Below the pieces are notes generated by a model. The model was not told where the DNA came from. It saw only the letters and a list, made by a program, of their open reading frames with translations, and did not search any database. Position numbers and translations under genes: made by a program. This document shows, piece by piece, positions 24,711 to 63,917 of a stretch of DNA of 64,000 bases (position 1 is the stretch's first letter; the number at the start of each line of letters is the position of its first letter). The DNA comes from a virus. The stretch lies in IMG/VR virus record IMGVR_UViG_3300013093_000001, positions 1-64,000 of that record. The stretch is one strand, 5' to 3'.

Positions 24711-25745
24711 GTGGGTAAACCGAGCGTCCGCGGGAGGTCAACGATCCCGCCACCGAAAAATGTCCTGTGCTCTTTTTTTTACTACAAAAAAGCGGATATG
24801 GAAAAGATAGCGCCCTGCCGCGTGATCGCGGATTCAGGAGCGTTCTCAGCTAAGCAAAATACGGAAACTTACCAGTTTGGTAACGCCGTCACTACGAAGG
24901 CGTTGGTTGCCTGGACCAAGAAGTGGGAACATTTGCTGTGCTGGGTGGCGTGTATTGACGTTGCGAGTGCTGAGCAAACGAAAATAAATTGGGATCGGAT
25001 GTGTCAGAGCGGTTTGCAGGCTGTTTCTACTCTGCATGTTGGTGACCATCCCAGTACGATGGACTGGTATGCGGAACGCGGGGTAGACTTTCTCGGTTTG
25101 GGTGGTATGGCGGGGAGTTATATTTCCGATAACGCTAAGATGCGCTGGATGATTGACTGCTTCAAATATGCGCGGGAAAACCACCCCGACATGCGCTTTC
25201 ATGGTTGGGGTATCACGCACGCGAAATTCCTGCGGTTACCGTTCTTTTCAGTGGATTCTTCCGGCTGGGGCAGTAGCTATCGGTATGGCCGCATTTCTTT
25301 GCGGAACCCGCTGACGGGAGAAACGCTGCCGTGCGTACTGGACGGTAAGTCTATCTATGACGCTAAGAACAAAAAACTCCGAGAGTTACTGATAGAGCAT
25401 TACGGTGTCAGTCCTAGCGAGATTGCTAAGGCTGGTCCCGCTAACCGGGTGTTGTTAGTCAAGCTATCTGCCTTGTCGGCCTCTGTGCAGGAACAGGAGT
25501 GGCGTAAGACGTTTCGAAAGCAACCCATTTACCCACCCTCTTGGGGCAGACTCAAAGGTTGGACGTTGGGTGACGGTCCTAATCAGCATTTGGCTTTAAG
25601 TGGTTGCGGCGCGGGGATCAGGGAGCGTAAAGCCTTCGCTGAATTCGACTATGGTCCACATATGCACCTGGTTGACGGATTTCCACCCCACTTGCGGGTG
25701 GTGGCTGAATTGAATGGCGCAGAACACCCCGAGGAGCTTGTATGA
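24711..25745 (+). CDS. dpdA: DpdA-like DNA 7-deazaguanine transglycosylase
   Basis: This 344-residue TGT-fold protein would exchange guanine in phage DNA for a 7-deazaguanine. Matching motifs are 'ADSGAFSAKQ' (Asp41, cf. DSGGFQ of tRNA transglycosylases) and 'FHGWGITH' followed by 'FFSVDSSGW' (Asp182), plus a C-terminal extension. It starts GTG right after the ParB-like stop and overlaps queD, so it belongs to the same operon as the precursor genes. A T8 run at 24773-24780 is a possible slippage site. Confidence 0.82.
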   Translation: MGKPSVRGRSTIPPPKNVLCSFFYYKKADMEKIAPCRVIADSGAFSAKQNTETYQFGNAVTTKALVAWTKKWEHLLCWVACIDVASAEQTKINWDRMCQSGLQAVSTLHVGDHPSTMDWYAERGVDFLGLGGMAGSYISDNAKMRWMIDCFKYARENHPDMRFHGWGITHAKFLRLPFFSVDSSGWGSSYRYGRISLRNPLTGETLPCVLDGKSIYDAKNKKLRELLIEHYGVSPSEIAKAGPANRVLLVKLSALSASVQEQEWRKTFRKQPIYPPSWGRLKGWTLGDGPNQHLALSGCGAGIRERKAFAEFDYGPHMHLVDGFPPHLRVVAELNGAEHPEELV

Positions 25746-53717: not shown

Positions 53718-53732
53718 TATCCTCCTTATCTG

Positions 53733-53784
53733 GGTCGGCCTCTGCCGACCGCGCACCCAGGCCAGGTAATGAACCTGACCTGGG
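53733..53784 (-). repeat. Double-hairpin intergenic element 1
   Basis: Short stem GGTCGGC/GCCGACC (53733-53750) and long stem (53756-53784) with loop AATGA. One plus-strand C.A mismatch in the long stem is G.U on the minus strand. Confidence 0.75.
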
Positions 53785-53791
53785 CCTTCTT

Positions 53792-54268
53792 TCAGTTGTG
53801 GTAGTCGACGTGCACCAGCCACGTTGACGGGTCGAGCGAAGCCAGGAATTTCAAAAACTGCTCTTCAAATTCCGGTCCGCGTTCCCAGTCACCAATCACG
53901 GTTGACCCGCTACCCTCTGGGCCAAGCCACTTCGTGTGCCACACGCAATCAAGGTCCAGGTAACTGTAGACGTAGTCTATCGACTCTGCTACAAGGTCAC
54001 CGACGCGTGCACAGTCGGTAGCGCCAGCTTCCGCGACTTCATCGGGGAAACCGAAACTGCTGGGCTCAGACGGCAGACCGCTAACACAGTCGGGTTTCAA
54101 CCGCCACTCACCACCCCACCTGCCGCCAACAACCCACCAGTCCCATTCAGGATCACCTTCTGGGTCACATGAATCGTAGCCATACCGGGACATGCGTAGT
54201 TCCAACTCGGACCGCAAGTTATCCGGCTCAACATCTCCCGGTATGGCGACAACATGGCTATAGTGCAT
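53792..54268 (-). CDS. Hypothetical protein with WWVVGGRWGG motif
   Basis: This 158-residue protein contains 'WDWWVVGGRWGGEW', a motif of a phage family of unknown role. It is mostly acidic with an aromatic C-terminus. ATG 54268 has GGTGG upstream and overlaps the DUF3846-like gene by 11 bases. Confidence 0.65.
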   Translation of the reverse strand: MHYSHVVAIPGDVEPDNLRSELELRMSRYGYDSCDPEGDPEWDWWVVGGRWGGEWRLKPDCVSGLPSEPSSFGFPDEVAEAGATDCARVGDLVAESIDYVYSYLDLDCVWHTKWLGPEGSGSTVIGDWERGPEFEEQFLKFLASLDPSTWLVHVDYHN

Positions 54269-54668
54269 TAGCCGCCACCTCATCTGTCACCGTGGACGCT
54301 GGGTATTTCGGCGCGAGTTGGTCCCGCAGGAACACCCAAATCCGGTCAGGCAGGCTGGTGGTTTCTCCCTGATCGTCGTGCGACGTCAGGGCAACAGGAC
54401 CGCAAATCACGTCCTGGTTACGCATCTCAGGGCATAAACCCCACCACAACGCTGTCGCTGGCTCATTAACCGGCAAGCCTTGCAGTTTGCCTTCTTCGTT
54501 ACACCACATGTCCAGTTCGTCTGTCACCCGAACCAGTTCAATGTAGCCACCGACAACACCCTGTAGGAATCCCAAACTGGTGGCTTCGTCACCTGACGAC
54601 ACCCGCCGAAATTCGTACAGACCACCAGAGTCCTGGTCGATAATGGCCGCTTTGTAACCTGTATTCAT
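54258..54668 (-). CDS. DUF3846-like protein
   Basis: This 136-residue protein fits DUF3846: 'GFLQGVVGGYIELVRVTDEL', 'MWCNEEGKLQGLPVNEPAT' and 'ICGPVALTSHDDQGE'. Common in phage early regions; function unknown. GGAGGAAAG precedes ATG. Confidence 0.75.
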   Translation of the reverse strand: MNTGYKAAIIDQDSGGLYEFRRVSSGDEATSLGFLQGVVGGYIELVRVTDELDMWCNEEGKLQGLPVNEPATALWWGLCPEMRNQDVICGPVALTSHDDQGETTSLPDRIWVFLRDQLAPKYPASTVTDEVAANAL

Positions 54669-54682
54669 CTTTCCTCCTGTCG

Positions 54683-54734
54683 GGTCTGACCTCGTGTCAG
54701 ACCTCGTGTCGCGGCAAGGTAGTGAGCCTTGCCG
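54683..54734 (-). repeat. Double-hairpin intergenic element 2
   Basis: Short stem GGTCTGAC/GTCAGACC (54683-54703) and long stem CGGCAAGG/CCTTGCCG (54712-54734). Confidence 0.7.
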
Positions 54735-54743
54735 GGACGAACT

Positions 54744-54899
54744 TTACGCTGGCGTGTCTGGGCCAAACATAGAGCGCAAGTAATTGAGCTCTTCTTTTTT
54801 GAGCTCACTGACATAGCGCAACTCGCCGCAGTGTTCGCAACTATGCGGGTGGTCATTGCCACCGTCGCATGAGCCACACACCCAATCGTCATACGTCAA
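54744..54899 (-). CDS. Small zinc-ribbon protein
   Basis: This 51-residue frame ('DDWVCGSCDGGNDHPHSCEH', 'CGELRYVSELKKEELNYL') has four Cys and several His residues, a compact zinc ribbon. The proposed TTG at 54899 is the only start before an upstream stop. A different overlapping frame gives a longer but non-protein-like sequence and was rejected. Confidence 0.55.
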   Translation of the reverse strand: MTYDDWVCGSCDGGNDHPHSCEHCGELRYVSELKKEELNYLRSMFGPDTPA

Positions 54900-54906
54900 T
54901 CTACTG

Positions 54907-55124
54907 CTACCTGCCTCTCTTGGTCACATTGAACTTGCCAGCCTTCAAGCGGTCTACTAATTCTCCCAATGCCGCCTCAAAACCGTCCGCGAAGGCGCTC
55001 GCTTCGTTTTGGTCCAGGTTTTTTCGTCTTTGCACAGCCACATGGGAGAGTGTTCCAGTTGGTCACGGACCCCGGCGACTGCTTCTTGACACCACTCCTC
55101 AACCGCGTGCTCGTCAAACTCCAT
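54907..55124 (-). CDS. Small helical protein split by a frameshift
   Basis: From ATG 55124 (AGGAAGG upstream) the frame reads 'MEFDEHAVEEWCQEAVAGVR' and 'SPMWLCKDEK', then meets an A6 run (minus strand, near 55019-55024). A -1 shift there continues 'NLDQNEASAFADGFEAALG' and ends 'KFNVTKRGR' at 54907, giving one smooth helical protein of about 72 residues. Without the shift the frame ends at 54957 with unconvincing sequence. This could be programmed frameshifting, a true indel, or a homopolymer error. Confidence 0.5.
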
Positions 55125-55241
55125 TGTTGCCTTCCTATAAATTGGTCCTGGCCTGTGCCAATACTCGCGTCCCGGTAAGGTAATAAGCCTTACCGGGACT
55201 GTACTAATAATTAGTACGCTTCACCACACCGGCAACCACAG
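55125..55241 (-). repeat. Double-hairpin intergenic element 3, with palindrome
   Basis: The long stem TCCCGGTAAGG/CCTTACCGGGA (55170-55198) is perfect. The short hairpin is degenerate (GGC-CTGT-GCC). A perfect palindrome GTACTAATAATTAGTAC follows at 55201-55217. Confidence 0.6.
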
Positions 55242-55454
55242 TTACGACGTTATCGGTTCTCCGCGTTGTTCGCCGCGTGCATTGTCCCAGGTATACATCA
55301 TGACATCGAGTGCATTAATGAACCTGACGTACATCTCCGATCCTGTCGGAAGGTAGCGCGGTATAGTTGCGCGTTGATCCCGACCGGTTACGGTTTCCGT
55401 CAAATGCACGTCCACTTGTATGCCGTCGTAGTCAATGCTGACCCTGATCGTCAC
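55242..55454 (-). CDS. Hypothetical protein
   Basis: This 70-residue GTG-start protein ('MTIRVSIDYDGIQVDVHLTE') is strand-rich and acidic. It overlaps the upstream gene by four bases. No family recognised. Confidence 0.55.
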   Translation of the reverse strand: MTIRVSIDYDGIQVDVHLTETVTGRDQRATIPRYLPTGSEMYVRFINALDVMMYTWDNARGEQRGEPITS

Positions 55455-55633
55455 GACCTAGACTCCCGCTGCATTATACGAATTTCGTCACGGATAACTG
55501 GGTGCCAAAAACTGTTAATTTCCGTTCCTGGTGTCCAATTTTGACGTGCCCACGACCGAAATTCTGCTTCTTCCTCCGGGGTCAAGTCACGGAAAATGCT
55601 CTCAAACTGACCCGACTTGCTGTTGCGGATCAT
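55451..55633 (-). CDS. Hypothetical protein
   Basis: This 60-residue protein contains 'LTPEEEAEFRSWARQNWTPG' and 'INSFWHPVIRDEIRIM', a short phage-type helical protein. The ATG overlaps the previous stop by one base. Confidence 0.6.
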   Translation of the reverse strand: MIRNSKSGQFESIFRDLTPEEEAEFRSWARQNWTPGTEINSFWHPVIRDEIRIMQRESRS

Positions 55634-55797
55634 TAAATTCCCCTCCGCATAGTCAAAACATGCGCTGCATGAGCTAAATTAATCCAAGCGTCAGCAAGTT
55701 GTATCTGACAATTGACTGTCAGTCTCTGACCTAGCGGACCATTCTCCACCGCAGTGAGTATTTTTTCTGCTTTCCGCAGGTACTCAACGGTTTCCAT
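55633..55797 (-). CDS. Small helical protein
   Basis: This 54-residue protein ('METVEYLRKAEKILTAVENG', 'QLADAWINLAHAAHVLTMR') is all helical. ATG 55797 is fixed by GGAGGAGGA immediately upstream; the open frame further up lies in the hairpin element. Confidence 0.65.
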   Translation of the reverse strand: METVEYLRKAEKILTAVENGPLGQRLTVNCQIQLADAWINLAHAAHVLTMRRGI

Positions 55798-55811
55798 TCC
55801 TCCTCCAATCA

Positions 55812-55866
55812 CCTTGGCCGGTTGCCAAGGACAGCGCCTGGGCGGGGCACTGAACCCCACCCAGGC
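55812..55866 (-). repeat. Double-hairpin intergenic element 4
   Basis: Short stem CCTTGGC/GCCAAGG (55812-55830) and long stem (55836-55866). The long stem has one plus-strand C.A that is G.U on the minus strand. Confidence 0.75.
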
Positions 55867-55870
55867 TTCC

Positions 55871-56149
55871 TCAATCTTTGTAAATCTTGGACCCCAATGC
55901 TTCTTCGGTCGCAATGACCAAATTCTGCATTGTAGTCAACTCCTGCTCCGTGGTTTCCGCCGCCATTGGCATCATCTCAACCCGGTACTCGACAATTTCG
56001 TCAAAACCAGCTTCTAGGTGGTCGTCAACGATTTTGGCAGCAGTAGCCGCTGTCATGCCGGGGTTATTCTCTCGCAGTTGCTGGATAAGTTCGCTGCGAC
56101 TGCCTCGGTAAACTCGGCTCTGGCCTTCCGGCCTCTTGCCGTCAGTCAT
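55871..56149 (-). CDS. Hypothetical protein
   Basis: This 92-residue protein has 'SRSELIQQLRENNPGMTAAT' and 'HLEAGFDEIVEYRVEMMPM'. ATG 56149 overlaps the upstream stop by eight bases, so translation is probably coupled. Unknown function. Confidence 0.58.
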   Translation of the reverse strand: MTDGKRPEGQSRVYRGSRSELIQQLRENNPGMTAATAAKIVDDHLEAGFDEIVEYRVEMMPMAAETTEQELTTMQNLVIATEEALGSKIYKD

Positions 56150-56612
56150 TTTGGCCGTCAACGTCGATATACAGCGTCCTGCTTGCACCCGGTCCTGTTT
56201 CAACGGTAATAGAAGCGTGGTCACCGTCAAAAACGATTTCAGCACTCCTGACTGCTTCCAACGACCGCTGCTTCACCGCCGCATACTTTGCGTCATGCGC
56301 CGCAAGACTCGCCGCCAAAGGACTTCTGTCTGTCAGGAATCCTGGGACTCGTTCTGACTGCAACCACTTGACCAAACCACTGACAAATTCTCGTGGTAAG
56401 GAAACCGTTGCTTCTGGCGCCTGCTCTACCATTGTGCCAAGCAGCGCATGGGGCCGGTTATTGACGACGGCAAGCATGACATCCAATGCCGGGTTAAGCT
56501 GCTCCAGCGGTAACTCCACGTCCCAGTCCAGACGGTCGAATGCCTGATCGGCTAGTTCGACAGCCCTATTTCGCACGGACTGCAACACGTCAGCAGTATT
56601 AGTATCTGCCAT
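56142..56612 (-). CDS. Hypothetical protein
   Basis: This 156-residue helical protein ('ALDVMLAVVNNRPHALLGTM', 'PREFVSGLVKWLQSERVPGF') shares the 'F..GL...L' arrangement of the gene at 57339. ATG 56612 follows GAGGAG. Unknown function. Confidence 0.62.
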   Translation of the reverse strand: MADTNTADVLQSVRNRAVELADQAFDRLDWDVELPLEQLNPALDVMLAVVNNRPHALLGTMVEQAPEATVSLPREFVSGLVKWLQSERVPGFLTDRSPLAASLAAHDAKYAAVKQRSLEAVRSAEIVFDGDHASITVETGPGASRTLYIDVDGQND

Positions 56613-56639
56613 GTTTAACTTCTCCTCTAATCTAGTGCA

Positions 56640-56691
56640 GGTCGGCTCTTTGCCGACCTCGTACCGGGTGCCGGTACGACCCGACACCCGG
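56640..56691 (-). repeat. Double-hairpin intergenic element 5
   Basis: Short stem GGTCGGC/GCCGACC (56640-56658) and long stem (56664-56691). The long stem has one plus-strand C.A that is G.U on the minus strand. Confidence 0.75.
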
Positions 56692-56698
56692 CCTCTTT

Positions 56699-57256
56699 TT
56701 ACGCTACAGCCTCAACGCGGTGGGTGTAAAAACACCCATTCTTCCCGCAGTCCACTTCCTGCTGCACAAGCGACCACATTGCGTCCCACACGCCGAATAG
56801 CAAATCATAATCGGACGGACGACGACCCAAACCGAAATCGTCTTCCGGCTTCATAAACATTGCTATGATCTCGCGTAGCGCCGCTGTCACAATGTCCTTC
56901 GCTGCGTCACACCAAACGAAATTCACGTCTGCCGGGTCGAAGCCCCGGTACCACGACCTCGGTCCCGGCGCTGGCTCTAAACCAGCGTTGGACCGCTCAA
57001 TTTGAGCGGCCCTGTACGCCTTCGTGTCGTGGCAGTCGCAGTAATTCCTGTCAGACGCGACAATCTCATCACTGGCAAGTAACTGCCAAATACTGAGATG
57101 GACACCGGCAAGCAACTCGCTGTCACTGGTCCTGCTGTGCAGGTCCGTGGCATACAAGTCCACGACCTCACGCAAAGCATCCTTCAGGATATCCGTGGCA
57201 TCTTCACACCACAGATAGTCGTCTGACTTTTTGTCGTCTTGGTACTCCCAAGCCAT
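56699..57256 (-). CDS. Hypothetical protein with internal duplication
   Basis: This 185-residue protein consists of two copies of one unit: 'YLWCEDATDILKDALREVV' with 'LLAGVHLSIWQLL', and 'FVWCDAAKDIVTAALREII' with 'LLFGVWDAMWSLV'. Each unit ends in a Cys pair region ('CDCHD', 'CGKNGC'). A dimer-like fold from one chain is likely. GGAGGAGAAAAG before ATG. Confidence 0.65.
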   Translation of the reverse strand: MAWEYQDDKKSDDYLWCEDATDILKDALREVVDLYATDLHSRTSDSELLAGVHLSIWQLLASDEIVASDRNYCDCHDTKAYRAAQIERSNAGLEPAPGPRSWYRGFDPADVNFVWCDAAKDIVTAALREIIAMFMKPEDDFGLGRRPSDYDLLFGVWDAMWSLVQQEVDCGKNGCFYTHRVEAVA

Positions 57257-57274
57257 ACTTTTCTCCTCCACTAT

Positions 57275-57330
57275 GGGAACCGGCCTTTGCCAGTCCCTCG
57301 TACCCCGGCCGGATTTGACACCGACCGGGG
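57275..57330 (-). repeat. Double-hairpin intergenic element 6
   Basis: Short stem with one bulge (57275-57297) and long stem CCCCGGCCGG/CCGACCGGGG (57303-57330). Each stem has one plus-strand C.A that is G.U on the minus strand. Confidence 0.7.
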
Positions 57331-57338
57331 CTGACCTA

Positions 57339-57803
57339 CTACCTACCCTGCGGGAACTCTTCCTGAATCAAAGCGGTGATAAACGCTTTGTGGTCAGCCA
57401 GGGCTTTATTCAGCGCAACGATCACGCCATACACCGCTTGTCGCTCTCGCCAGTCCTGCATCTGCTCCTCGTAGTATTGTCCAGCGGTGACCGTGGAAGC
57501 AGGCAAACGGAACTGTTTGTCCTCACTAAGCGAGTTTAGTATCGCGTTAGGGTCGTCCGGCTTCTGGGGTTGCGGTTCGTTGCCAACAACAGGAGAAAAA
57601 CCCCAGTATTGTGCTTCCAGATGATCGATCAGACCTGTCAGAAATTGCTGCGTTATCGGGAAGCCGTCTTCTCCTGCTGGCTGATCATCCGTCAACACAA
57701 CGTCGGCAGCCTGCTTCAGCGCTAGCTTCAACGTGCTGCCAGGTACTTCCAAGACGTAATGATCACACGCCTCGTCAATCCGACGCTGCAATTCTGTTGT
57801 CAT
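57339..57803 (-). CDS. Hypothetical protein
   Basis: This 154-residue mostly helical protein ('STLKLALKQAADVVLTDDQP', 'FLTGLIDHLEAQYWGF') lies just after Ku in the transcript. Unknown function. GGAGGAAAG precedes ATG. Confidence 0.62.
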   Translation of the reverse strand: MTTELQRRIDEACDHYVLEVPGSTLKLALKQAADVVLTDDQPAGEDGFPITQQFLTGLIDHLEAQYWGFSPVVGNEPQPQKPDDPNAILNSLSEDKQFRLPASTVTAGQYYEEQMQDWRERQAVYGVIVALNKALADHKAFITALIQEEFPQGR

Positions 57804-57817
57804 CTTTCCTCCAATCT

Positions 57818-57870
57818 GACCCGACCCTTTGCCGGGTTCGTACCCCGGTCAGGCTCGACCCTGACCGGGG
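57818..57870 (-). repeat. Double-hairpin intergenic element 7
   Basis: Short stem GACCCGAC/GCCGGGTTC (57818-57839) and perfect 11-bp long stem CCCCGGTCAGG/CCTGACCGGGG (57843-57870). Confidence 0.75.
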
Positions 57871-57878
57871 CTGGGCAG

Positions 57879-58736
57879 CTAGCTGACCTTCCTGGTCGGC
57901 GCTGCTCGCTTAGCTGGCGCTTTCTTAGGCGCAGCCTTCTTAGCTGGTGTCTTACCAGCCGGATGCCGCTTGACGGACGCTTCCAGCTGCGCCATCAAGT
58001 CGGACACGTCGTCGTCGCGCTGGTCCAGATCAACGACGCTGGTCAACACGCCACCCTTAGCTTTCGTGTCAATCAACGCCGCGACCTGCGCGGTGTAGGT
58101 GTCAACGAAGTTGGCGGGACTAAAGTCCTCAATCATGCTGTCAACGACTGCGTGCGCCATTTCCAGCATTTTGGGTGACTCAATGGTCCCGTTTAAATGC
58201 TGCAAACCATTAGCGTCACGGATTTCGTCCAGCCAAATCAGGGTGTGCATGACCAACACGTTGCCAAGGACGCGGATGACAGCCATTTGCTGTCGTGTTC
58301 GCAACACAAACTTTGCGACCGCAACAACATCTGACTCCACCATGACCCGACGCAACAGCGCGTAACCTTGAGAGCTGTTGTCTGTGGGTTCCAAAAAGTA
58401 ACTGGACTCCCACATAATCGGGTCAATCTCGTCACTGTGACAAAACTGGACCACCTCAATGGCCGACAACTTATTGGCTTCCTGCAACTGCGCCAGGTCG
58501 TCATCGGTAATAACGACAATCTTGTCGTCATCAACCAGCTTGCCTTTAATGACTTCGTCAGACCGTGGGTTGACGCCACACTTCTTACACACGCGGGGCT
58601 GACCAATCGCACCCTCGCAACCTGCATGGAACAGGTTAAACGAGATGTCATGGCTGTCCGTTGCCTTGTAGAGTTTGACACCCACATTCACTAAACCGAA
58701 GTTCAGTGACGTGTTTTTCACTGATCTCATACCCAT
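57879..58736 (-). CDS. ku: Ku-like DNA end-binding protein
   Basis: This 285-residue protein matches bacterial and phage Ku: 'LNFGLVNVGVKLYKATDSHD', 'ISFNLFHAGCEGAIGQPRV', 'CHSDEIDPIMWESSYFLEP' and 'VVAVAKFVLRTRQQMAVIRV'. The C-terminus is a Lys/Ala/Pro-rich tail ('AKKAAPKKAPAKRAAP') for DNA binding. It would recruit host LigD for end joining, as described for phages Omega and Corndog. ATG 58736 follows GGAGGAAAA and has its own promoter. Confidence 0.9.
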   Translation of the reverse strand: MGMRSVKNTSLNFGLVNVGVKLYKATDSHDISFNLFHAGCEGAIGQPRVCKKCGVNPRSDEVIKGKLVDDDKIVVITDDDLAQLQEANKLSAIEVVQFCHSDEIDPIMWESSYFLEPTDNSSQGYALLRRVMVESDVVAVAKFVLRTRQQMAVIRVLGNVLVMHTLIWLDEIRDANGLQHLNGTIESPKMLEMAHAVVDSMIEDFSPANFVDTYTAQVAALIDTKAKGGVLTSVVDLDQRDDDVSDLMAQLEASVKRHPAGKTPAKKAAPKKAPAKRAAPTRKVS

Positions 58737-58776
58737 GTTTTCCTCCTCCACGGCGACCCTTTGCCACCGCTTATTT

Positions 58777-58815
58777 ATTTTAGCCAGACAACTGGCTACT
58801 CACCACCCGGTGGTG
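58777..58815 (-). promoter_or_regulatory. Ku promoter with overlapping operator-like palindrome
   Basis: TAAAAT (58777-58782) is 17 bases from TGGTGA (58800-58805) on the minus strand. A perfect CACCACC-C-GGTGGTG palindrome (58801-58815) overlaps the -35 box, and TAGCCAG-ACAA-CTGGCTA (58781-58798 region) fills the spacer. The leader contains a short hairpin only. Confidence 0.55.
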
Positions 58816-58856
58816 GCGAAATCTATGACCCCTCCAGGTAAAATCTCCTCAATACA

Positions 58857-58898
58857 GGGGAGGTGTAACGACCCGTCAGGTTCGCTACACCCCCTCCC
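58857..58898 (-). terminator. Terminator-like hairpin
   Basis: GGGAGGTGTA pairs with TACACC/TCCC across a 3-base bulge, directly after the stop of the zinc-ribbon gene at 58898. It would separate that gene from the Ku promoter. Confidence 0.4.
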
Positions 58899-59143
58899 TA
58901 CTCAGGGTGGTAAATGCCGTGCATTTCGTCTAGGCATTTGTCGCAGTGCTTGACGTAAGACGGCTTTCCGTCAACTAGCCAAAACTCTGTACCATAAATC
59001 TGGTTTGGCAATATCTGCCTCACGCATGTACTACAGGCATGGCTCTTCCTTGCTCGGCGGTACCGGGTCTCACCTAGCTGTAATTCATCAATCCAGTCAA
59101 CTTCTTCTGGATCATCCCTGTAGCCAGCGTAGATGCTAGCCAC
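58898..59143 (-). CDS. Zinc-ribbon protein
   Basis: This 81-residue protein has 'HACSTCVRQILPNQIYGTEF' and 'HCDKCLDEMH', one zinc site. The GTG at 59143 is proposed from the 8-base overlap with the upstream gene. Unknown role. Confidence 0.58.
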   Translation of the reverse strand: MASIYAGYRDDPEEVDWIDELQLGETRYRRARKSHACSTCVRQILPNQIYGTEFWLVDGKPSYVKHCDKCLDEMHGIYHPE

Positions 59144-59525
59144 AATGCCACCGCAGCATTTGAGAATAGTTGACGCAACCCTCTGCGTAACCCTCGGTAT
59201 ACATTTCCGCTCTCTGCTGGTCGTATTGCCGCTCCGACTCCTTGTACTGCGCGAGCAGTTCAGGCGACAGACGTGACTCGTCAACAGTCAACAAAACTCG
59301 CTGACCATTGCACACAGAGCAAAGCGCATCATAGACACCCGACTTGTAATCCTGCCAAAAGTCGGGGTCTTGATCGTACATTTCATCCTGGGTCATACCG
59401 CCCTCCCAGCAATCATGCACACCGCGACCTTCACAACGCCAGCAGACCTCGTACTTGTCGGGCAAGTTGACGCTCGTCGGTCCGTCTTCGCTGTTTGCGT
59501 CGGTACCAAGCATCTGGTACTTCAT
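59136..59525 (-). CDS. DnaJ-type zinc-finger-like protein
   Basis: This 129-residue protein has two CxxCxG-like motifs, 'CWRCEGRGVHDC' and 'CSVCNGQRV', plus a Tyr/Glu-rich helical C-terminus. Similar short proteins are frequent in phage early regions. GGAGGAGAG precedes ATG. Confidence 0.68.
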   Translation of the reverse strand: MKYQMLGTDANSEDGPTSVNLPDKYEVCWRCEGRGVHDCWEGGMTQDEMYDQDPDFWQDYKSGVYDALCSVCNGQRVLLTVDESRLSPELLAQYKESERQYDQQRAEMYTEGYAEGCVNYSQMLRWHCG

Positions 59526-59544
59526 GCTTCTCTCCTCCTAACCG

Positions 59545-59595
59545 GGCTGGCTTGTGCCAGCCTCGCACCCTGGCCGGGTTCGACCCCGGCCAGGG
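59545..59595 (-). repeat. Double-hairpin intergenic element 8
   Basis: Short stem GGCTGGC/GCCAGCC (59545-59562) and perfect 11-bp long stem CCCTGGCCGGG/CCCGGCCAGGG (59568-59595), loop TTCGAC. Confidence 0.8.
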
Positions 59596-59599
59596 CTCG

Positions 59600-59800
59600 T
59601 CAGGCCAATCCCCTGACGTACAGGTAACCCTTCACCCGTTCGGCCAGCTCGTAAGCGGAATCGATGATATCCAATTCGTTGGACGAATTGTCATACCGCT
59701 CGTAAAACTGGTTCAGCGCAGCCACGACCGCCTTTGCGTCGTATTCTTGCCGCTCCTGCATAATCGGCAATGACTGCGGCGACCACCAGTGGCCGCTCAC
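59600..59800 (-). CDS. Hypothetical protein
   Basis: This 66-residue GTG-start protein ('AVVAALNQFYERYDNSSNEL', 'AYELAERVKGYLYVRG') is helical. It overlaps the upstream stop (GTGA). Unknown function. Confidence 0.58.
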   Translation of the reverse strand: MSGHWWSPQSLPIMQERQEYDAKAVVAALNQFYERYDNSSNELDIIDSAYELAERVKGYLYVRGLA

Positions 59801-60003
59801 ATACCCGGCTTGAAGTCGAAGTACACACGCGGGTTGTGCGTGAACTCCATGACACCTTCGACACGGTCCGACTTCCGTCGGACCATGACGTATGGAGCAG
59901 AGAAGCCAATGACTTCAAATTCTGCCTGTAACTGCTCGGTGTCCCACGTCTGTCCCTCTGGCTTGCGACCAGAGTCGTAGTTGTGGATTTCAATACCTGA
60001 CAT
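59797..60003 (-). CDS. Hypothetical protein
   Basis: This 68-residue protein ('QLQAEFEVIGFSAPYVMVRR', 'GVMEFTHNPRVYFDFKPG') is strand-rich. GGAGGAAAA fixes ATG 60003. Resembles short phage proteins with a 'V.VRRK..GV.G...F.H.PR.Y' pattern; function unknown. Confidence 0.65.
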   Translation of the reverse strand: MSGIEIHNYDSGRKPEGQTWDTEQLQAEFEVIGFSAPYVMVRRKSDRVEGVMEFTHNPRVYFDFKPGM

Positions 60004-60020
60004 TTTTCCTCCTCCACTTG

Positions 60021-60073
60021 GGTCGGCCTGGTGCCGACCTCGCGCCGTGGTTGAGTTCGACCCCAACCACGGC
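60021..60073 (-). repeat. Double-hairpin intergenic element 9
   Basis: Short stem GGTCGGC/GCCGACC (60021-60039) and long stem GCCGTGGTTG/CAACCACGGC (60044-60073), loop TTCGAC. One plus-strand A.C is U.G on the minus strand. Confidence 0.8.
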
Positions 60074-60084
60074 AATTCTTAGTC

Positions 60085-60435
60085 TCAAACCCGCAGCGTA
60101 ACAGCCTGCGGGTTCCTCAACCCAACCGCGAAGGTGTGGTCACCACCGACATCCGTATTACAATGACGGCAGTAGGTTGTAGCACCTACCACTGACAGCG
60201 CTGATCGCACCCAGGCGAAATGATCGCCAACACACGGCAGGCAAACAGCGCCTCCAGGTTGACCGCACTCCTGCATTGCAATATGCGTTGCTTCCCGTTT
60301 GCCACACAGGCCACACCGAATTACCCCGCCAGCTACCTCAGCTAACGAATAAATCTCCCTGAGAGTTTCGATATATGCTTCACCCGTTTTCTCGCTGAGA
60401 GACTCAAGTAATTCTGCTATTAATTCTTCTCCCAT
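60085..60435 (-). CDS. Multi-zinc-ribbon protein
   Basis: This 116-residue protein has a helical N-terminus ('LIAELLESLSEKTGEAYIET') and several Cys pairs ('RCGLCGKREATH', 'VCLPCVGDH', 'YCRHCNTDVGG'). Probably nucleic-acid or protein binding. GGAGGAGGAAAC before ATG. Confidence 0.65.
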   Translation of the reverse strand: MGEELIAELLESLSEKTGEAYIETLREIYSLAEVAGGVIRCGLCGKREATHIAMQECGQPGGAVCLPCVGDHFAWVRSALSVVGATTYCRHCNTDVGGDHTFAVGLRNPQAVTLRV

Positions 60436-60451
60436 GTTTCCTCCTCCTTGT

Positions 60452-60498
60452 GGCTGGTTGTCAGCCCCGTGCGCTGGCCGGGTAATGAACCCGGCCAG
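60452..60498 (-). repeat. Double-hairpin intergenic element 10
   Basis: Short stem GGCTG/CAGCC (60452-60466) and perfect 10-bp long stem CTGGCCGGGT/ACCCGGCCAG (60474-60498), loop AATGA. Confidence 0.75.
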
Positions 60499-60505
60499 GG
60501 CTGTG

Positions 60506-60859
60506 TCATAGCCGCGACAGGACACCGTTAATTAGTTCTGCCACCGCATCCAACGTCACGCCACCAGACAATTTTAGCTTCTCAGCAACATAATCAGCGC
60601 TGACCGGACTGTCGAAGGTGTATGCCCCGCAGGACTTGACTGCAACGAATACCTGCCTGTGGTTGACATAACTGATCGTATTGCTGCCACCGACGTCGCA
60701 AGGCGATGCAAACAAAATCCGCAGCGCAGTAGCCTGTCTATCCGTCCAAAGCAGAGCGACCGACCCGTAGTAATTCATATCGAACACCACGGCGTCGAAT
60801 GTACCGTCGCTGTTGACAACCTGATTGTATTCGTCAAGCGTGTACTGCCGCTCACCCAT
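60506..60859 (-). CDS. Hypothetical protein
   Basis: This 117-residue protein ('QYTLDEYNQVVNSDGTFDAV', 'RQVFVAVKSCGAYTFDSPV') looks alpha/beta. ATG 60859 overlaps the previous stop (TGATG). Unknown function. Confidence 0.6.
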   Translation of the reverse strand: MGERQYTLDEYNQVVNSDGTFDAVVFDMNYYGSVALLWTDRQATALRILFASPCDVGGSNTISYVNHRQVFVAVKSCGAYTFDSPVSADYVAEKLKLSGGVTLDAVAELINGVLSRL

Positions 60860-61020
60860 CACTCTGGTCCGTTCGCCCAAAAATCCAGCAACTCAAGAAT
60901 TCCGGTGAGGGCTTCGGCAATAGCTATCTGCGCGTGGTCCTGGCTAGTTGGACGCAAATCCGCACGCCCGTTTTTAGCCCAACCGATCCGCTCTCGCGCA
61001 TTTTTCAGGTGTTGATTCAC
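60859..61020 (-). CDS. Small hypothetical protein
   Basis: This 53-residue GTG-start protein ('VNQHLKNARERIGWAKNGRA', 'IAIAEALTGILELLDFWA') follows GGAGGAAAA. Helical; its end overlaps the next ATG. Confidence 0.6.
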   Translation of the reverse strand: MNQHLKNARERIGWAKNGRADLRPTSQDHAQIAIAEALTGILELLDFWANGPE

Positions 61021-61035
61021 TTTTCCTCCAATCTG

Positions 61036-61086
61036 GTCCGGCATTTGCCGGACTCGTACCCCGGCCAGGTTCGACCCTGGCCGGGG
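61036..61086 (-). repeat. Double-hairpin intergenic element 11
   Basis: Short stem GTCCGGC/GCCGGAC (61036-61053) and perfect 11-bp long stem CCCCGGCCAGG/CCTGGCCGGGG (61059-61086). Confidence 0.8.
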
Positions 61087-61091
61087 CGTGT

Positions 61092-61553
61092 CTAGCTCGC
61101 TATGACGCCGCTACCCTCGCAACGCAGGCAGGTCTGGTATCCCAGCGACTCGTGGTCGTAGTCAAACCATTGCGACCCTGGTTCAAGTTGCAGAAGCTTG
61201 CTGCGGTGCAATTCCTCGCTGTAGTTAAAGCCTTCGCCGCTGCAACCCGCGCAAGTGCGCTTGCCTGTCAACTGCAATTCCAGTTCGTAGACAATCGCCG
61301 CAACCTCACAGTTGCAAATATTGACGCTGTGATCGCAACCCAAATCGTCTGAGAGGTATTCAATCAACGACGCCACCAGCGCCTTGGGTACAGGTTGACT
61401 GTCACCCCGCTCTGGGTGTTTTTCCATCTCAGCGCGGTAGTCAGCGATCTCAGTTCTGCGCATCAATGTCCAAGACGGACGTTCGATGGGGTCACTGACC
61501 CGCAACGCCTCACTCAGCAGGACATTCTCAATTTCGACCCACTCAGTAGACAT
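61092..61553 (-). CDS. Protein with DnaJ-like zinc motif
   Basis: This 153-residue protein has a helical front and a C-terminal pair 'CAGCSGEGF' and 'CLRCEGSGV', like the DnaJ central zinc domain. Relative of the gene at 59136 in motif only. GGAGGAGAG before ATG. Confidence 0.65.
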   Translation of the reverse strand: MSTEWVEIENVLLSEALRVSDPIERPSWTLMRRTEIADYRAEMEKHPERGDSQPVPKALVASLIEYLSDDLGCDHSVNICNCEVAAIVYELELQLTGKRTCAGCSGEGFNYSEELHRSKLLQLEPGSQWFDYDHESLGYQTCLRCEGSGVIAS

Positions 61554-61568
61554 CTCTCCTCCTAACTG

Positions 61569-61620
61569 GGCTGGCCTCTTGCCAGCCTCGTACCCCGGCC
61601 AGGTTCGACCCTGACCGGGG
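61569..61620 (-). repeat. Double-hairpin intergenic element 12
   Basis: Short stem GGCTGGC/GCCAGCC (61569-61587) and long stem CCCCGGCCAGG/CCTGACCGGGG (61593-61620). One plus-strand C.A is G.U on the minus strand. Confidence 0.8.
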
Positions 61621-61625
61621 CTATT

Positions 61626-62024
61626 TCAACGAACCGTGAACGACACGGTCATTCCGTCACTCCTACGGTCTATCCTGTCACGCAAACGCGACAGCGAAGC
61701 AAACAGGTGTGCGTGTGGGACTGCTGCAACACCGAACCGTTTGAAACCACCTGGATCGTCAAACTCATCTGCTAAAAACGACTCCGTGTAGTAGTCCTCT
61801 GCGTCTTCGTCAACGTAGCGCACAACTAATCTCCTCACAGGCAACGGACTCAACTCAGCCAGCAACGGCTCCCACAAGCATTGATCGGCAGTGAACGTCA
61901 CTTCGTTCTTCGGCCAGCCAAACGTGTCCCTCGGTCCTTCTGACACCCAAGACCAACCTAGCCCTACGGCCATAGTCCGTATGTTTGCTCGGTTTTTCTC
62001 TGCAATCTCGTACTCGTACTGCAC
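61626..62024 (-). CDS. Hypothetical protein
   Basis: This 132-residue GTG-start protein ('MAVGLGWSWVSEGPRDTFGW', 'PVRRLVVRYVDEDAEDYYTE') appears alpha/beta. GGAGGAGGAAAAAA before the start. No family recognised. Confidence 0.62.
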   Translation of the reverse strand: MQYEYEIAEKNRANIRTMAVGLGWSWVSEGPRDTFGWPKNEVTFTADQCLWEPLLAELSPLPVRRLVVRYVDEDAEDYYTESFLADEFDDPGGFKRFGVAAVPHAHLFASLSRLRDRIDRRSDGMTVSFTVR

Positions 62025-62046
62025 AGTTTTTTCCTCCTCCTAACTG

Positions 62047-62097
62047 GTCTGGCTCATGCCAGACTCGTACCCGGTACAGGTTCGACCCTGTACCGGG
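62047..62097 (-). repeat. Double-hairpin intergenic element 13
   Basis: Short stem GTCTGGC/GCCAGAC (62047-62064) and perfect 11-bp long stem CCCGGTACAGG/CCTGTACCGGG (62070-62097). Confidence 0.8.
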
Positions 62098-62105
62098 CGC
62101 TACCG

Positions 62106-62345
62106 CTAAACCTTCTGCTTACGCGGCTCAAACTCGGTCACAATCGGTTGCGTAGCAGACCCATGATGTGTCCAGTGGTAGTACCCCATCTGGTCAACAC
62201 CAGTGAACTCTAAGGGTGGCGGGAACTCTACTAAAACATAGCCGTAACCCAACCGGGCACCTTGCTGCCGGAAGTTATGTTTGGCTTCCGACACGCTGCT
62301 GCCTCGACCCCAGCGGTTTTGACCCATCACAAGGAATGTGGACAT
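62106..62345 (-). CDS. Hypothetical protein
   Basis: This 79-residue protein ('MSTFLVMGQNRWGRGSSVSE', 'LGYGYVLVEFPPPLEFTGVD') is a small conserved-looking phage protein. GGAGGAAAG fixes ATG 62345. Function unknown. Confidence 0.62.
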   Translation of the reverse strand: MSTFLVMGQNRWGRGSSVSEAKHNFRQQGARLGYGYVLVEFPPPLEFTGVDQMGYYHWTHHGSATQPIVTEFEPRKQKV

Positions 62346-62360
62346 TCTTTCCTCCAATCT

Positions 62361-62414
62361 GACCCGACCTCTTGCCGGGTTCGCGTCCTAGCCAGGTTCG
62401 ACCCTGACTAGGAC
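62361..62414 (-). repeat. Double-hairpin intergenic element 14
   Basis: Short stem GACCCGAC/GCCGGGTT (62361-62382) and 12-bp long stem GTCCTAGCCAGG/CCTGACTAGGAC (62385-62414). C.A on plus is G.U on minus. Confidence 0.8.
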
Positions 62415-62421
62415 TCCTTTA

Positions 62422-62667
62422 TTAGTCTTGGGTACCGTAGCTACCCAACCTGCCACGCAATTCTTTCAGCGTGTCAATCTCCCGCGTCAACTGGTTGGCG
62501 TGTGCTTTGGCGACTTCCAGCGCCGCGTTCCCAACCGCTCGGGTGATGTGCCTGAGCGTGGCATTGATGTGGCTGATGTCAGTGGACTGCCGCAACCACA
62601 TCGCGTCCCGCAAGCAGCCATCCAACTCCAAAACCAAGTCGTTGATGGCGTCTTGTAAGTGCTCCAT
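62422..62667 (-). CDS. Helical / coiled-coil protein
   Basis: This 81-residue protein ('MEHLQDA INDLVLELDGC' then 'LEVAKAHANQLTREIDTLKE') is predicted to be all helix. AGGAGGAAA fixes ATG 62667. Unknown function. Confidence 0.6.
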   Translation of the reverse strand: MEHLQDAINDLVLELDGCLRDAMWLRQSTDISHINATLRHITRAVGNAALEVAKAHANQLTREIDTLKELRGRLGSYGTQD

Positions 62668-62683
62668 TTTCCTCCTTCTAACT

Positions 62684-62735
62684 GGCTGACTCTTTGTCAG
62701 CCTCGTACCCCGGCCAGTTCTGACACTGGCCGGGG
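62684..62735 (-). repeat. Double-hairpin intergenic element 15
   Basis: Short stem GGCTGAC/GTCAGCC (62684-62702) and perfect 11-bp long stem CCCCGGCCAGT/ACTGGCCGGGG (62708-62735), loop TCTGAC. Confidence 0.8.
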
Positions 62736-62740
62736 CCACC

Positions 62741-63271
62741 TCACGCCGCAAATGCGTCGTACCACACCTTCCGCTTGTCACCACAGCAAGGGCCATAAAA
62801 CCACCCACGCCTATTAACTCTAAGCCGGTGCGCTGTCACGTTACCGTGACAGTAGAAGCAATGCGGGACCAGCTTACCGTCAGCTATCGTAAACTCTAGC
62901 TGCTGCCTCGGCTTATTGTTCCAGCCAACAAAGAACCTAAAAATTCTCAGGTGACTGGTATGACGCATCAAATGCAATGACCTTGCTAGCCTCGCTAACC
63001 GCAGCAGGGCTAAACCACCACCTGCCACGGGCAGTAACGCTGCCACAATGACACAAGCATCAAACACGTTCCAAAAAGACCGGAAGAAAAGCCTGGTAAA
63101 CGCGACACGAAGAGCCAGTTCACACGCAAAGAACAGCAAAACAGCGTTGTCCAGCCGCTCAAGTAATTCAGCGTTCGTGTCATCTACAAGGCTCCACGCC
63201 ACCAGACCAAGGTTGGTTAGAATTGCGACCATCACTACCCGGTCTAGCGGGGAAGACCTGTTGTGCGACAT
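62741..63271 (-). CDS. Voltage-sensor-like membrane protein with zinc C-terminus
   Basis: This 176-residue protein has four membrane segments: 'VVMVAILTNLGLVAWSLV', 'NAVLLFFACELALRVAF', 'FWNVFDACVIVAALLP' and an S4-like 'LLRLARLARSLHLMR' with Arg at every third position. This is the layout of an ion-channel voltage-sensor domain without a pore. The last 60 residues form a cytoplasmic zinc-type domain ('HCFYCHGN', 'GPCCGDKRKVWY'). Role unknown: membrane-potential sensing, or depolarisation. AGGAGGAGG in the leader. Confidence 0.75.
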   Translation of the reverse strand: MSHNRSSPLDRVVMVAILTNLGLVAWSLVDDTNAELLERLDNAVLLFFACELALRVAFTRLFFRSFWNVFDACVIVAALLPVAGGGLALLRLARLARSLHLMRHTSHLRIFRFFVGWNNKPRQQLEFTIADGKLVPHCFYCHGNVTAHRLRVNRRGWFYGPCCGDKRKVWYDAFAA

Positions 63272-63327
63272 TTCTCATAAACCTCCTCCTAACATCCCCG
63301 ACCCTGTGTCGGGGAAATCTGTGTGGG
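63272..63327 (-). promoter_or_regulatory. Leader hairpin of the voltage-sensor-like gene
   Basis: CCCCGAC-CCTGT-GTCGGGG lies upstream of the ribosome site, like the short hairpin of the intergenic elements but without the long stem; the tandem cassettes take its place. Confidence 0.5.
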
Positions 63328-63444
63328 GAGGCGGCGGCGCAGGTACTGCGCCCGAGCCATGTAACCGGGCAAGGCAATCCTTGCTTCCATTGCCACCAAA
63401 AATGAATGAAAACGGTGGGATGGTGAGTTTAACGCCGCCGCCTC
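63328..63444. ncRNA. Structured RNA candidate, copy 1
   Basis: Outer stem GAGGCGGCGGCG/CGCCGCCGCCTC (12 bp) encloses an inner stem GCCCG/CGGGC and a stem CCACC/GGTGG. Its first 18 bases inside the stem and last 16 bases are identical to copy 2, but the interior differs. Strand unknown. Confidence 0.5.
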
Positions 63445-63477
63445 AAGCCTCAAAAAGTTTGTGTGGAAAGGTGGTGG

Positions 63478-63598
63478 GGGGGCGGCGGCGCAGGTACTAC
63501 ACGCCCCGTAGTAAAAGGGCGCTTATTGGTAGTCCTTACTTTCCAATTTCCCACCAGCAAGGAACGAGAAATTGGTTGAGCTTAACGCCGCCGCCTCC
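63478..63598. ncRNA. Structured RNA candidate, copy 2
   Basis: Outer stem of 12-13 bp with one G.T pair, inner stem CGCCC/GGGCG and stem CCAATTTC/GAAATTGG, in the same order and spacing as copy 1. Inner stems differ in sequence but keep pairing. Confidence 0.5.
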
Positions 63599-63601
63599 AG
63601 C

Positions 63602-63844
63602 CTATGCTGACCGCCGTGAAGCGGCCATCGTTCGTACCTTGCTGACCACCCAGCGGGTGAATTTTACAAGATAACGAACTGCTGTGACCAAGAACCACGC
63701 GAGGCAAGCGAAAATCAGCAGTTCAGACAACTTGCGATTCTTTCGCATAACGCTCAGTATCACTTCTCCAGCGATTAGCTGGACCGCGTTACTGCTCAGG
63801 TGCTTCGTCAGTTCTTCAAACTGGTTTGGTCGTTCAAGCAACAC
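63602..63844 (-). CDS. Small membrane protein
   Basis: This 80-residue GTG-start protein has one membrane helix ('LLIFACLAWFLVTAVRYLV') and basic flanks ('VSKVRTMAASRRSA'). GAGGAAAG precedes GTG. It is encoded just before the tandem RNA cassettes and the voltage-sensor-like gene. Confidence 0.62.
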   Translation of the reverse strand: MLLERPNQFEELTKHLSSNAVQLIAGEVILSVMRKNRKLSELLIFACLAWFLVTAVRYLVKFTRWVVSKVRTMAASRRSA

Positions 63845-63860
63845 CTTTCCTCCTCTCCTA

Positions 63861-63913
63861 AGCTGGCCTTATGCCAGCTTCGTGTCCAGCACGACTTCGA
63901 CATCGTGCTGGAC
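63861..63913 (-). repeat. Double-hairpin intergenic element 16
   Basis: Short stem AAGCTGGC/GCCAGCTT (63860-63880) and perfect 11-bp long stem GTCCAGCACGA/TCGTGCTGGAC (63884-63913). Confidence 0.8.
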
Positions 63914-63917
63914 TTCC

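What the first reader, a model, noticed from the sequence alone, without database searches (positions are those of the whole stretch)
53718..63917. Sixteen double-hairpin intergenic elements with covarying stems
At 16 gene junctions in the minus-strand right arm the gap holds the same layout (minus strand): stop codon, long 8-12 bp stem with a 6-base GTCGAA-type or a TCATT-type loop, a short linker often TACGAG, a 7-8 bp stem with a 4-5 base loop, then AGGAGGA and the start codon. Stem bases vary but pairing is kept: GGCTGGC/GCCAGCC, GGTCGGC/GCCGACC, GTCTGGC/GCCAGAC, GGCTGAC/GTCAGCC, AGCTGGC/GCCAGCT, CCTTGGC/GCCAAGG. This is compensatory change at one family of sites in one genome. It implies a structured RNA with a shared function: cistron-by-cistron processing, 3'/5' stability, attenuation or a protein-binding site.
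Basis: partly seen in the sequence, partly recalled or inferred. Interest (0 to 1): 0.88.

Follow-up and report, generated by a model that had tools for sequence, protein, structure and literature searches.

The report
tRNA-mimic hairpins between phage genes
Almost every gene junction in one arm of this uncultured actinobacteria-type phage carries a small RNA fold that copies the top half of a tRNA, and similar anticodon-less tRNA mimics sit between genes of cultured Mycobacterium and Gordonia phages, which suggests that the host's tRNA-cutting enzyme RNase P chops the long phage messages into single-gene messages.

Summary
In detail: all 16 elements are there. The full 113.9-kb genome has 45, all on the minus strand: 44 at 53.7-75.3 kb and one at 90.4 kb. 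Stem 1 is a 12-bp helix in every copy, with 98.5% of cells paired and strong compensatory change.

The helix length equals 7+5 bp. The loop carries U55-C56-R57, position 1 is G (43/45), position -1 is unpaired, and position 73 is a purine followed by C74 (45/45 each).

Cultured phages settle the resemblance. Gordonia phages VanLee, Cafasso and Morgana, and M. smegmatis phages MrMiyagi, Cuke and Indlulamithi, have the same layout. There stem 1 is an unmistakable anticodon-less mini-tRNA: acceptor stem, D-loop-like GG, canonical T-arm TTCRANT, then R-C-G, second hairpin, Shine-Dalgarno and start codon. An Indlulamithi copy hits Rfam's tmRNA model.

Best explanation: tRNA punctuation by host RNase P, cutting 5' of G1 a few bases after each stop codon. 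The mimicry is shown; cleavage is inferred. I found no published description. Closest kinds: RNase P minimal substrates, mitochondrial tRNA punctuation, phage C4 RNA.

The parts
53733..53785 (-). element 1: 12-bp tRNA-like stem, 7-nt loop TTCATTA, GCGC, second hairpin
54683..54738 (-). element 2: 12-bp stem (one mismatch), loop CTCACTA, ACGA, second hairpin
55145..55199 (-). element 3: 12-bp stem, loop CTTATTA, GCGA, second hairpin
55812..55866 (-). element 4: 12-bp stem, loop TTCAGTG, GCTG, second hairpin
56639..56692 (-). element 5: 12-bp stem, loop GTCGTA, ACGA, second hairpin
57276..57331 (-). element 6: 12-bp stem (one mismatch), loop GTCAAA, ACGA, second hairpin
57819..57871 (-). element 7: 12-bp stem, loop GTCGAG, ACGA, second hairpin (downstream of the Ku gene)
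59545..59596 (-). element 8: 12-bp stem, loop GTCGAA, GCGA, second hairpin
60021..60073 (-). element 9: 12-bp stem, loop GTCGAA, GCGA, second hairpin
60449..60501 (-). element 10: 12-bp stem (one mismatch), loop TTCATTA, ACGG, second hairpin
61036..61087 (-). element 11: 12-bp stem, loop GTCGAA, ACGA, second hairpin
61569..61621 (-). element 12: 12-bp stem, loop GTCGAA, ACGA, second hairpin; best covariance-model score
62047..62098 (-). element 13: 12-bp stem, loop GTCGAA, ACGA, second hairpin
62362..62414 (-). element 14: 12-bp stem, loop GTCGAA, GCGA, second hairpin
62684..62736 (-). element 15: 12-bp stem, loop GTCAGA, ACGA, second hairpin
63860..63913 (-). element 16: 12-bp stem, loop GTCGAA, ACGA, second hairpin; the array continues beyond the window with 28 copies at 64.3-75.3 kb and one at 90.4 kb of the record

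Best explanation
Each element is a two-part intercistronic RNA. Part 1 is a minimal tRNA mimic: a 12-bp helix equal to acceptor (7) plus T stem (5), capped by a UCR loop in the T-loop place and followed by purine-73, C74. It starts a few bases after the stop codon of the gene upstream. Host RNase P should bind it through the T-loop side, measure 12 bp, and cut between base -1 and G1. That would turn the long message into monocistronic pieces, each starting with a 5'-monophosphate base-paired in a very stable helix. Part 2, a 7-9 bp hairpin before a strong AGGAGG, would keep the new 5' region protected and the ribosome site open. Other actinophages use a fuller version with a D-loop-like GG or a D-arm and a canonical T-arm. 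Shown here: the structure, its compensatory change, the tRNA-like features, the position at junctions and the fuller relatives. Inferred: cleavage by RNase P, protection of the products and the benefit to the phage. A second cut by RNase Z after base 73 is possible but less supported, because C74 is conserved.
For: 12-bp register in 45/45, G1 43/45, U55 45/45, C56 44/45, purine 57 45/45, purine 73 45/45, C74 45/45, base -1 able to pair with 73 in 1/45 against 26% expected. Stop codon ends within 11 nt of stem 1 in most copies, and all but a few have a start codon 23-61 nt downstream. Six other phages have the same layout with unmistakable anticodon-less mini-tRNAs, one matching Rfam tmRNA at E=1.7e-6, VanLee copies folding with a D-arm. 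Bacterial RNase P cleaves acceptor/T-arm hairpins, uses the 12 bp as a ruler and pairs its GGU with R73-C74-C75; phage and mRNA targets are known (PMC11143913). A type-A RNase P RNA of Nocardia concava carries CGGGU at that place.
Against: No transcript ends were available. Most window loops are 6 nt with G at 54, pair 53-61 varies and there is no D-loop, so the T-loop fold is not canonical in this phage. C75 is replaced by G75 in 42/45 copies here and 33/39 elsewhere, losing one of three RCC contacts. Some Cuke-type copies look like 11 rather than 12 bp. The phages closest by structural genes lack the array.
Confidence: 0.6

Rival explanations
1. The tRNA mimicry is real but serves binding, not cutting: a tRNA-binding protein (EF-Tu, a T-arm modifying enzyme such as TruB, or a phage or host regulator) sits on the elements and coordinates translation or stability of the whole set.
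For: The conserved parts are exactly those that tRNA-binding proteins read. G75 in place of C75 in several phage groups suggests a reader other than the plain RCC contact of RNase P. VanLee encodes a Ro (TROVE) RNA-binding protein.
Against: Base -1 kept unpaired and G1 kept are not needed for mere binding. Ro is absent from the window phage and from the other array-bearing phages. No shared phage regulator was found, though only some proteins were searched.
Confidence: 0.2
2. Ordinary insulating or stabilising hairpins, or RNase III sites as in T7: strong stems between cistrons shield mRNA ends, and the loop is conserved only because it is stable.
For: Stem 1 is very stable (mean -24 kcal/mol) and sits at junctions with a strong ribosome site.
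Against: Stability alone does not explain the fixed 12-bp register with two loop lengths, the UCR loop, R73-C74 in 45/45, the unpaired -1 base, or the mini-tRNAs of the other phages. RNase III normally needs longer duplexes (own knowledge).
Confidence: 0.1
3. DNA-level elements: recombination or cassette-exchange sites (integron attC-like) or dyad protein-binding sites.
For: One element per small-gene cassette resembles integron logic (own knowledge). Inverted repeats of cluster K phages are read by their authors as likely DNA-protein sites, and cluster O and EG phages have repeated dyads.
Against: Stem sequence varies freely while pairing holds; G.U outnumbers A.C 26 to 3 on the mRNA strand; all copies have one orientation relative to the genes. 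The tRNA features have no role in this view.
Confidence: 0.04

Closest known systems
RNase P minimal model substrates (AT1-type acceptor-stem/T-stem/T-loop hairpins; PMC11143913)
   Same: Acceptor plus T-stem stack of 12 bp, loop in T-loop place, G1, R73-C74.
   Different: AT1 is an artificial hairpin with a canonical T-loop and a full RCCA end; here the elements are natural, repeated 45 times in an operon, mostly with a 6-nt loop and RCGA.
Mitochondrial tRNA punctuation (own knowledge)
   Same: tRNA folds between protein genes mark where a polycistronic RNA is cut.
   Different: There the punctuation is functional tRNAs; here it is tRNA mimics without an anticodon, with a second hairpin and a Shine-Dalgarno, in phages.
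RNase P-processed phage RNAs (C4 antisense RNA of P1/P7, M3 RNA, T4 gene 32 mRNA; cited in PMC11143913)
   Same: Phage transcripts cut by host RNase P at tRNA-like folds.
   Different: Single sites in those phages; here an array at nearly every junction of one arm.
tmRNA tRNA-like domain, mascRNA/menRNA, YrlA (Rfam)
   Same: tRNA mimics without a normal anticodon arm; the tmRNA and mascRNA models hit mini-tRNAs of other phages.
   Different: Stand-alone RNAs, not junction elements; no Rfam family reaches threshold in the window.
SAS/ESAS of cluster K mycobacteriophages and cluster EF Microbacterium phages (PMC3203893, PMC7302621)
   Same: Repeated elements just upstream of start codons in the non-structural arm, with an inverted repeat before the ribosome site.
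   Different: SAS is a conserved 13-mer absent here; ESAS repeats keep sequence and, per the authors, do not support RNA pairing, the reverse of what is seen here.

Membership tests
RNase P substrate (acceptor/T-arm minihelix type) | 12 bp between the 5' end (G1) and the T-loop | tested here: met
   12-bp register fits 45/45
RNase P substrate (acceptor/T-arm minihelix type) | G at +1 and unpaired -1/73 | tested here: met
   G1 43/45; -1 pairable with 73 in 1/45, 26% expected
RNase P substrate (acceptor/T-arm minihelix type) | 3' R73-C74-C75 pairing with GGU of RNase P RNA | tested here: inconclusive
   R73 45/45 and C74 45/45 but G75 42/45; Nocardia RNase P RNA has CGGGU
RNase P substrate (acceptor/T-arm minihelix type) | T-loop fold (7 nt, T54 T55 C56 R57 A58) | tested here: inconclusive
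   Window: 40 loops of 6 nt, U55 45/45, C56 44/45, R57 45/45, but G54 38/45. Other phages: canonical
RNase P substrate (acceptor/T-arm minihelix type) | Cleavage between -1 and +1 | not testable with these tools
   no RNA or enzyme data
tRNA gene | cloverleaf with anticodon arm, found by tRNA finders | tested here: not met
   ARAGORN finds none in the window or in Cafasso L089
tmRNA / mascRNA / YrlA (Rfam) | score above gathering threshold | tested here: not met
   none in the window; sub-threshold hits in other phages: tmRNA E=1.7e-6 to Indlulamithi, mascRNA E=0.21 to Cafasso
SAS/ESAS (cluster K) | 13-bp SAS consensus GGGATAGGAGCCC at the ribosome site | tested here: not met
   0 matches with up to 2 mismatches in the window
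Intrinsic terminator | GC-rich hairpin followed by a U-tract | tested here: not met
   elements are followed by ACGA or the Shine-Dalgarno; not in the terminator list
Integron attC site | core site, extrahelical bases and integrase | not tested
   not searched

The most novel reading that the evidence does not exclude
A previously undescribed mode of phage gene expression in actinophages: operons punctuated at nearly every gene by anticodon-less tRNA mimics, cut by host RNase P (perhaps also RNase Z) into protected monocistronic messages, with the mimic worn down to a bare 12-bp minihelix in the window phage.
Probability: 0.5. Interest if true: 0.92.

Novelty: new variant of a known kind. Interest (0 to 1): 0.82.

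Why it matters
RNase P cutting of mRNA is known only from scattered cases. This would be a natural, array-scale use of tRNA mimicry to process phage messages. It is present in phages that grow on M. smegmatis and Gordonia laboratory strains, so it can be tested directly. It would add a reusable RNA part (a ~30-nt cistron separator), a class of functional non-coding elements that tRNA finders miss, and a host factor on which these phages' gene expression may depend.

Tried and rejected
Looked for close relatives by DNA: no megablast hit in GenBank phages, none for the consensus in IMG/VR, and scattered single hits in IMG/VR and bacterial genomes that do not fit the covariance model. TerL relatives in IMG/VR, up to 77% identical but mostly short, gave at most one weak match each in two records. 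Typha, Bipper, prophiGD43A-5, Wanda and WXIN: no array. IMG/VR contig G014 looked like a hit but holds real tRNA genes, so I did not count it. Halovirus HF2 intergenic repeats are promoters, not tRNA mimics. The tail pattern GGCACCCAACA led to nothing tRNA-like in IMG/VR. Ro/Y-RNA as a general partner: TROVE only in VanLee. Intrinsic terminators, SAS/ESAS and tRNA genes rejected. Literature searches (the VanLee paper) found no report of these elements, but subscription journals and preprints are mostly not in that library.
Full report
What is there. The window is positions 1-64,000 of a 113,905-bp virus record. A purely structural scan (two GC-rich hairpins within 10 nt; no loop or linker sequence asked for) gave 48 pairs on the minus strand, against 2-4 in each of five dinucleotide shuffles of the whole genome. 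A covariance model from 31 of them recovered the rest, and one further copy (55,866) came from the first scan. In total there are 45 copies: 44 between 53.7 and 75.3 kb and one at 90.4 kb, all on the minus strand. The last also lies just upstream of a minus-strand ORF. The 16 copies of the finding are exactly those inside 53,718-63,917.

Anatomy (minus strand). Stop codon; a gap of usually 2-11 nt; stem 1 of 12 bp (at most one mismatch in a copy); a 6-nt loop (GTCGAA 24, GTCAAA 5, GTCAGA 5, others) or a 7-nt loop (TTCATTA 2, TTCAGTG, CTCACTA, CTTATTA); R-C-G-A; stem 2, mostly 7-9 bp with an A-rich 4-5-nt loop (two or three copies have no clear stem 2 of this kind); a Shine-Dalgarno around GGAGGAGG; start codon. 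In most copies the upstream stop codon ends within 11 nt of the first base of stem 1.

Covariation. 532 of 540 stem-1 cells pair; 11 of 12 pairs show changes on both sides; column shuffles never came near (tool version on 31 copies). G.U outnumbers A.C 26 to 3 outside the outer pair, so selection acts on the mRNA strand. Caveat: these are paralogous copies in one genome, and the shuffles ignore relatedness.

The tRNA resemblance. Numbering stem 1 as acceptor (1-7/66-72) plus T stem (49-53/61-65), the copies show G1 in 43/45, U55 45/45, C56 44/45, purine 57 45/45, purine 73 45/45, C74 45/45, G75 42/45 and A76 38/45. Base -1 could pair with base 73 in 1 of 45, against 26% expected. The 31 training copies were chosen on pairing alone, so these bases were not selected for in them; the later copies were found with a model that had learned them.

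The clinching comparison. A BLAST of the consensus element gave one weak intergenic hit in Gordonia phage Cafasso and two near-identical phages. Cafasso's junctions have the same layout, but stem 1 is visibly a tRNA without the anticodon arm: GCCCCGA-ACGGTTCACCGG-CCAGG-TTCGATT-CCTGG-CCGGGGC-ACG, then a hairpin often with a GNRA loop, AACA, Shine-Dalgarno, ATG. Following this by BLAST led to VanLee and Morgana (Gordonia) and MrMiyagi, Cuke and Indlulamithi (M. smegmatis). VanLee has 13 copies, with a shuffle mean of 0.3, and an exact pattern over its whole genome gives 13 on one strand and none for the reversed control. In Cuke and MrMiyagi almost every successive gap of one cassette carries one. 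Over 39 clear copies: GG in the insert 39/39, A58 39/39, T60 37/39, R73 39/39, G75 33/39, G1 38/39; acceptor pairs 1-6 and the outer T-stem pairs co-vary, position 7 is mostly unpaired. In that scan loop length, U55, C56, R57 and C74 were part of the filter; R73, G75, A58 and GG were not. The invariant columns of a 19-copy alignment are GG, GGTTC, A58, T60, CC and C74, the bases that form the tRNA elbow. VanLee copies add a D-arm, for example GCTC-TGGT-GAGC and GCCC-TGGT-GGGC, and the centroid fold of one shows acceptor, D-arm and T-arm. Rfam's tmRNA model hits an Indlulamithi copy at E=1.7e-6, below its gathering score, and mascRNA/menRNA gives a weak hit to a Cafasso copy, E=0.21. ARAGORN does not see the Cafasso copies.

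Mechanism. [quoted passage not shown] the 12 bp between T-loop and 5' end are its proposed ruler; its P15 GGU pairs with R73-C74-C75; known targets include phage C4 and M3 RNAs and some mRNAs (PMC11143913). A type-A RNase P RNA from Nocardia concava, in the order Mycobacteriales (own knowledge), has CGGGU where I place that contact in the Rfam alignment. The window element has the ruler, G1, the unpaired -1 base and two of the three RCC contacts. The most likely role is therefore cistron-by-cistron cutting by host RNase P just after each stop codon, leaving each message with a base-paired 5'-monophosphate end. RNase Z cutting after base 73 is possible, but a conserved C74 speaks against it (own knowledge). 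The second hairpin would then be the 5' guard. None of the cutting is shown.

What does not fit. The window loops are mostly 6 nt with G at 54, pair 53-61 varies, and there is no D-loop. G75 replaces C75 in all the phage groups, which may be an escape from CCA recognition or mark another reader. The nearest relatives by structural genes lack the array (TerL 57% to Typha-type phages; capsid 55% to prophiGD43A-5), so the system comes and goes independently of the virion genes. The host of the window phage is unknown; its terminase, capsid and Ku relatives are mostly mycobacteriophages.

Verdict. Observation confirmed and extended. First interpretation partly right but too general. Tiers: a tRNA-like element family shared by several actinophage genera, about 0.9; RNase P processing as its main function, about 0.6.

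Noticed in passing
window 63330-63610 (minus), partial third copy near 68.9 kb of the record: Two tandem ~130-nt non-coding repeats (GCGGCGGCGTTAARCTCA ... GTACCTGCGCCGCCGC) that fold into a closed multi-branched structure, -62.5 and -49.4 kcal/mol; not a tRNA mimic, no Rfam hit. Possibly a separate structured RNA.
   Followed up: partly
window 62741-63271 (minus): 176-aa protein matching Pfam Ion_trans (E=4.9e-13) over a stretch that looks like a voltage-sensor-type domain; unusual for a phage.
   Followed up: partly
window 57879-58751 (minus): Ku-like DNA-end-binding protein, about 36% identical to those of Omegavirus mycobacteriophages.
   Followed up: partly
window about 58740-58900 (minus): The long gap upstream of the Ku gene has different hairpins and no tRNA-like element, unlike its neighbours.
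   Followed up: no
window 24711-25745 (plus): Queuine tRNA-ribosyltransferase-type protein (phrog_7068, E=3e-107), possibly for 7-deazaguanine modification of DNA or tRNA.
   Followed up: no
70.3 and 75.3 kb of the record (L005, minus): Two copies of a three-hairpin leader (GGGTGGG-type stem, CCCAACA-GCGA-TGTTGGG, then a tRNA-like element); may mark operon heads.
   Followed up: no
L101:7330-7406 and 7495-7558 (Gordonia phage VanLee): Two Rfam YrlA (Y RNA-like) matches, E=2e-7 and 0.002, both sub-threshold, next to a Ro-like protein gene; the annotated tRNA-Arg overlaps the second.
   Followed up: partly
L103:6089-6290 and L106:7490-7688: After the mini-tRNA array MrMiyagi and Cuke have one longer element ending in ACCA that looks like a degenerate full tRNA; perhaps an ancestor-like form.
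   Followed up: no
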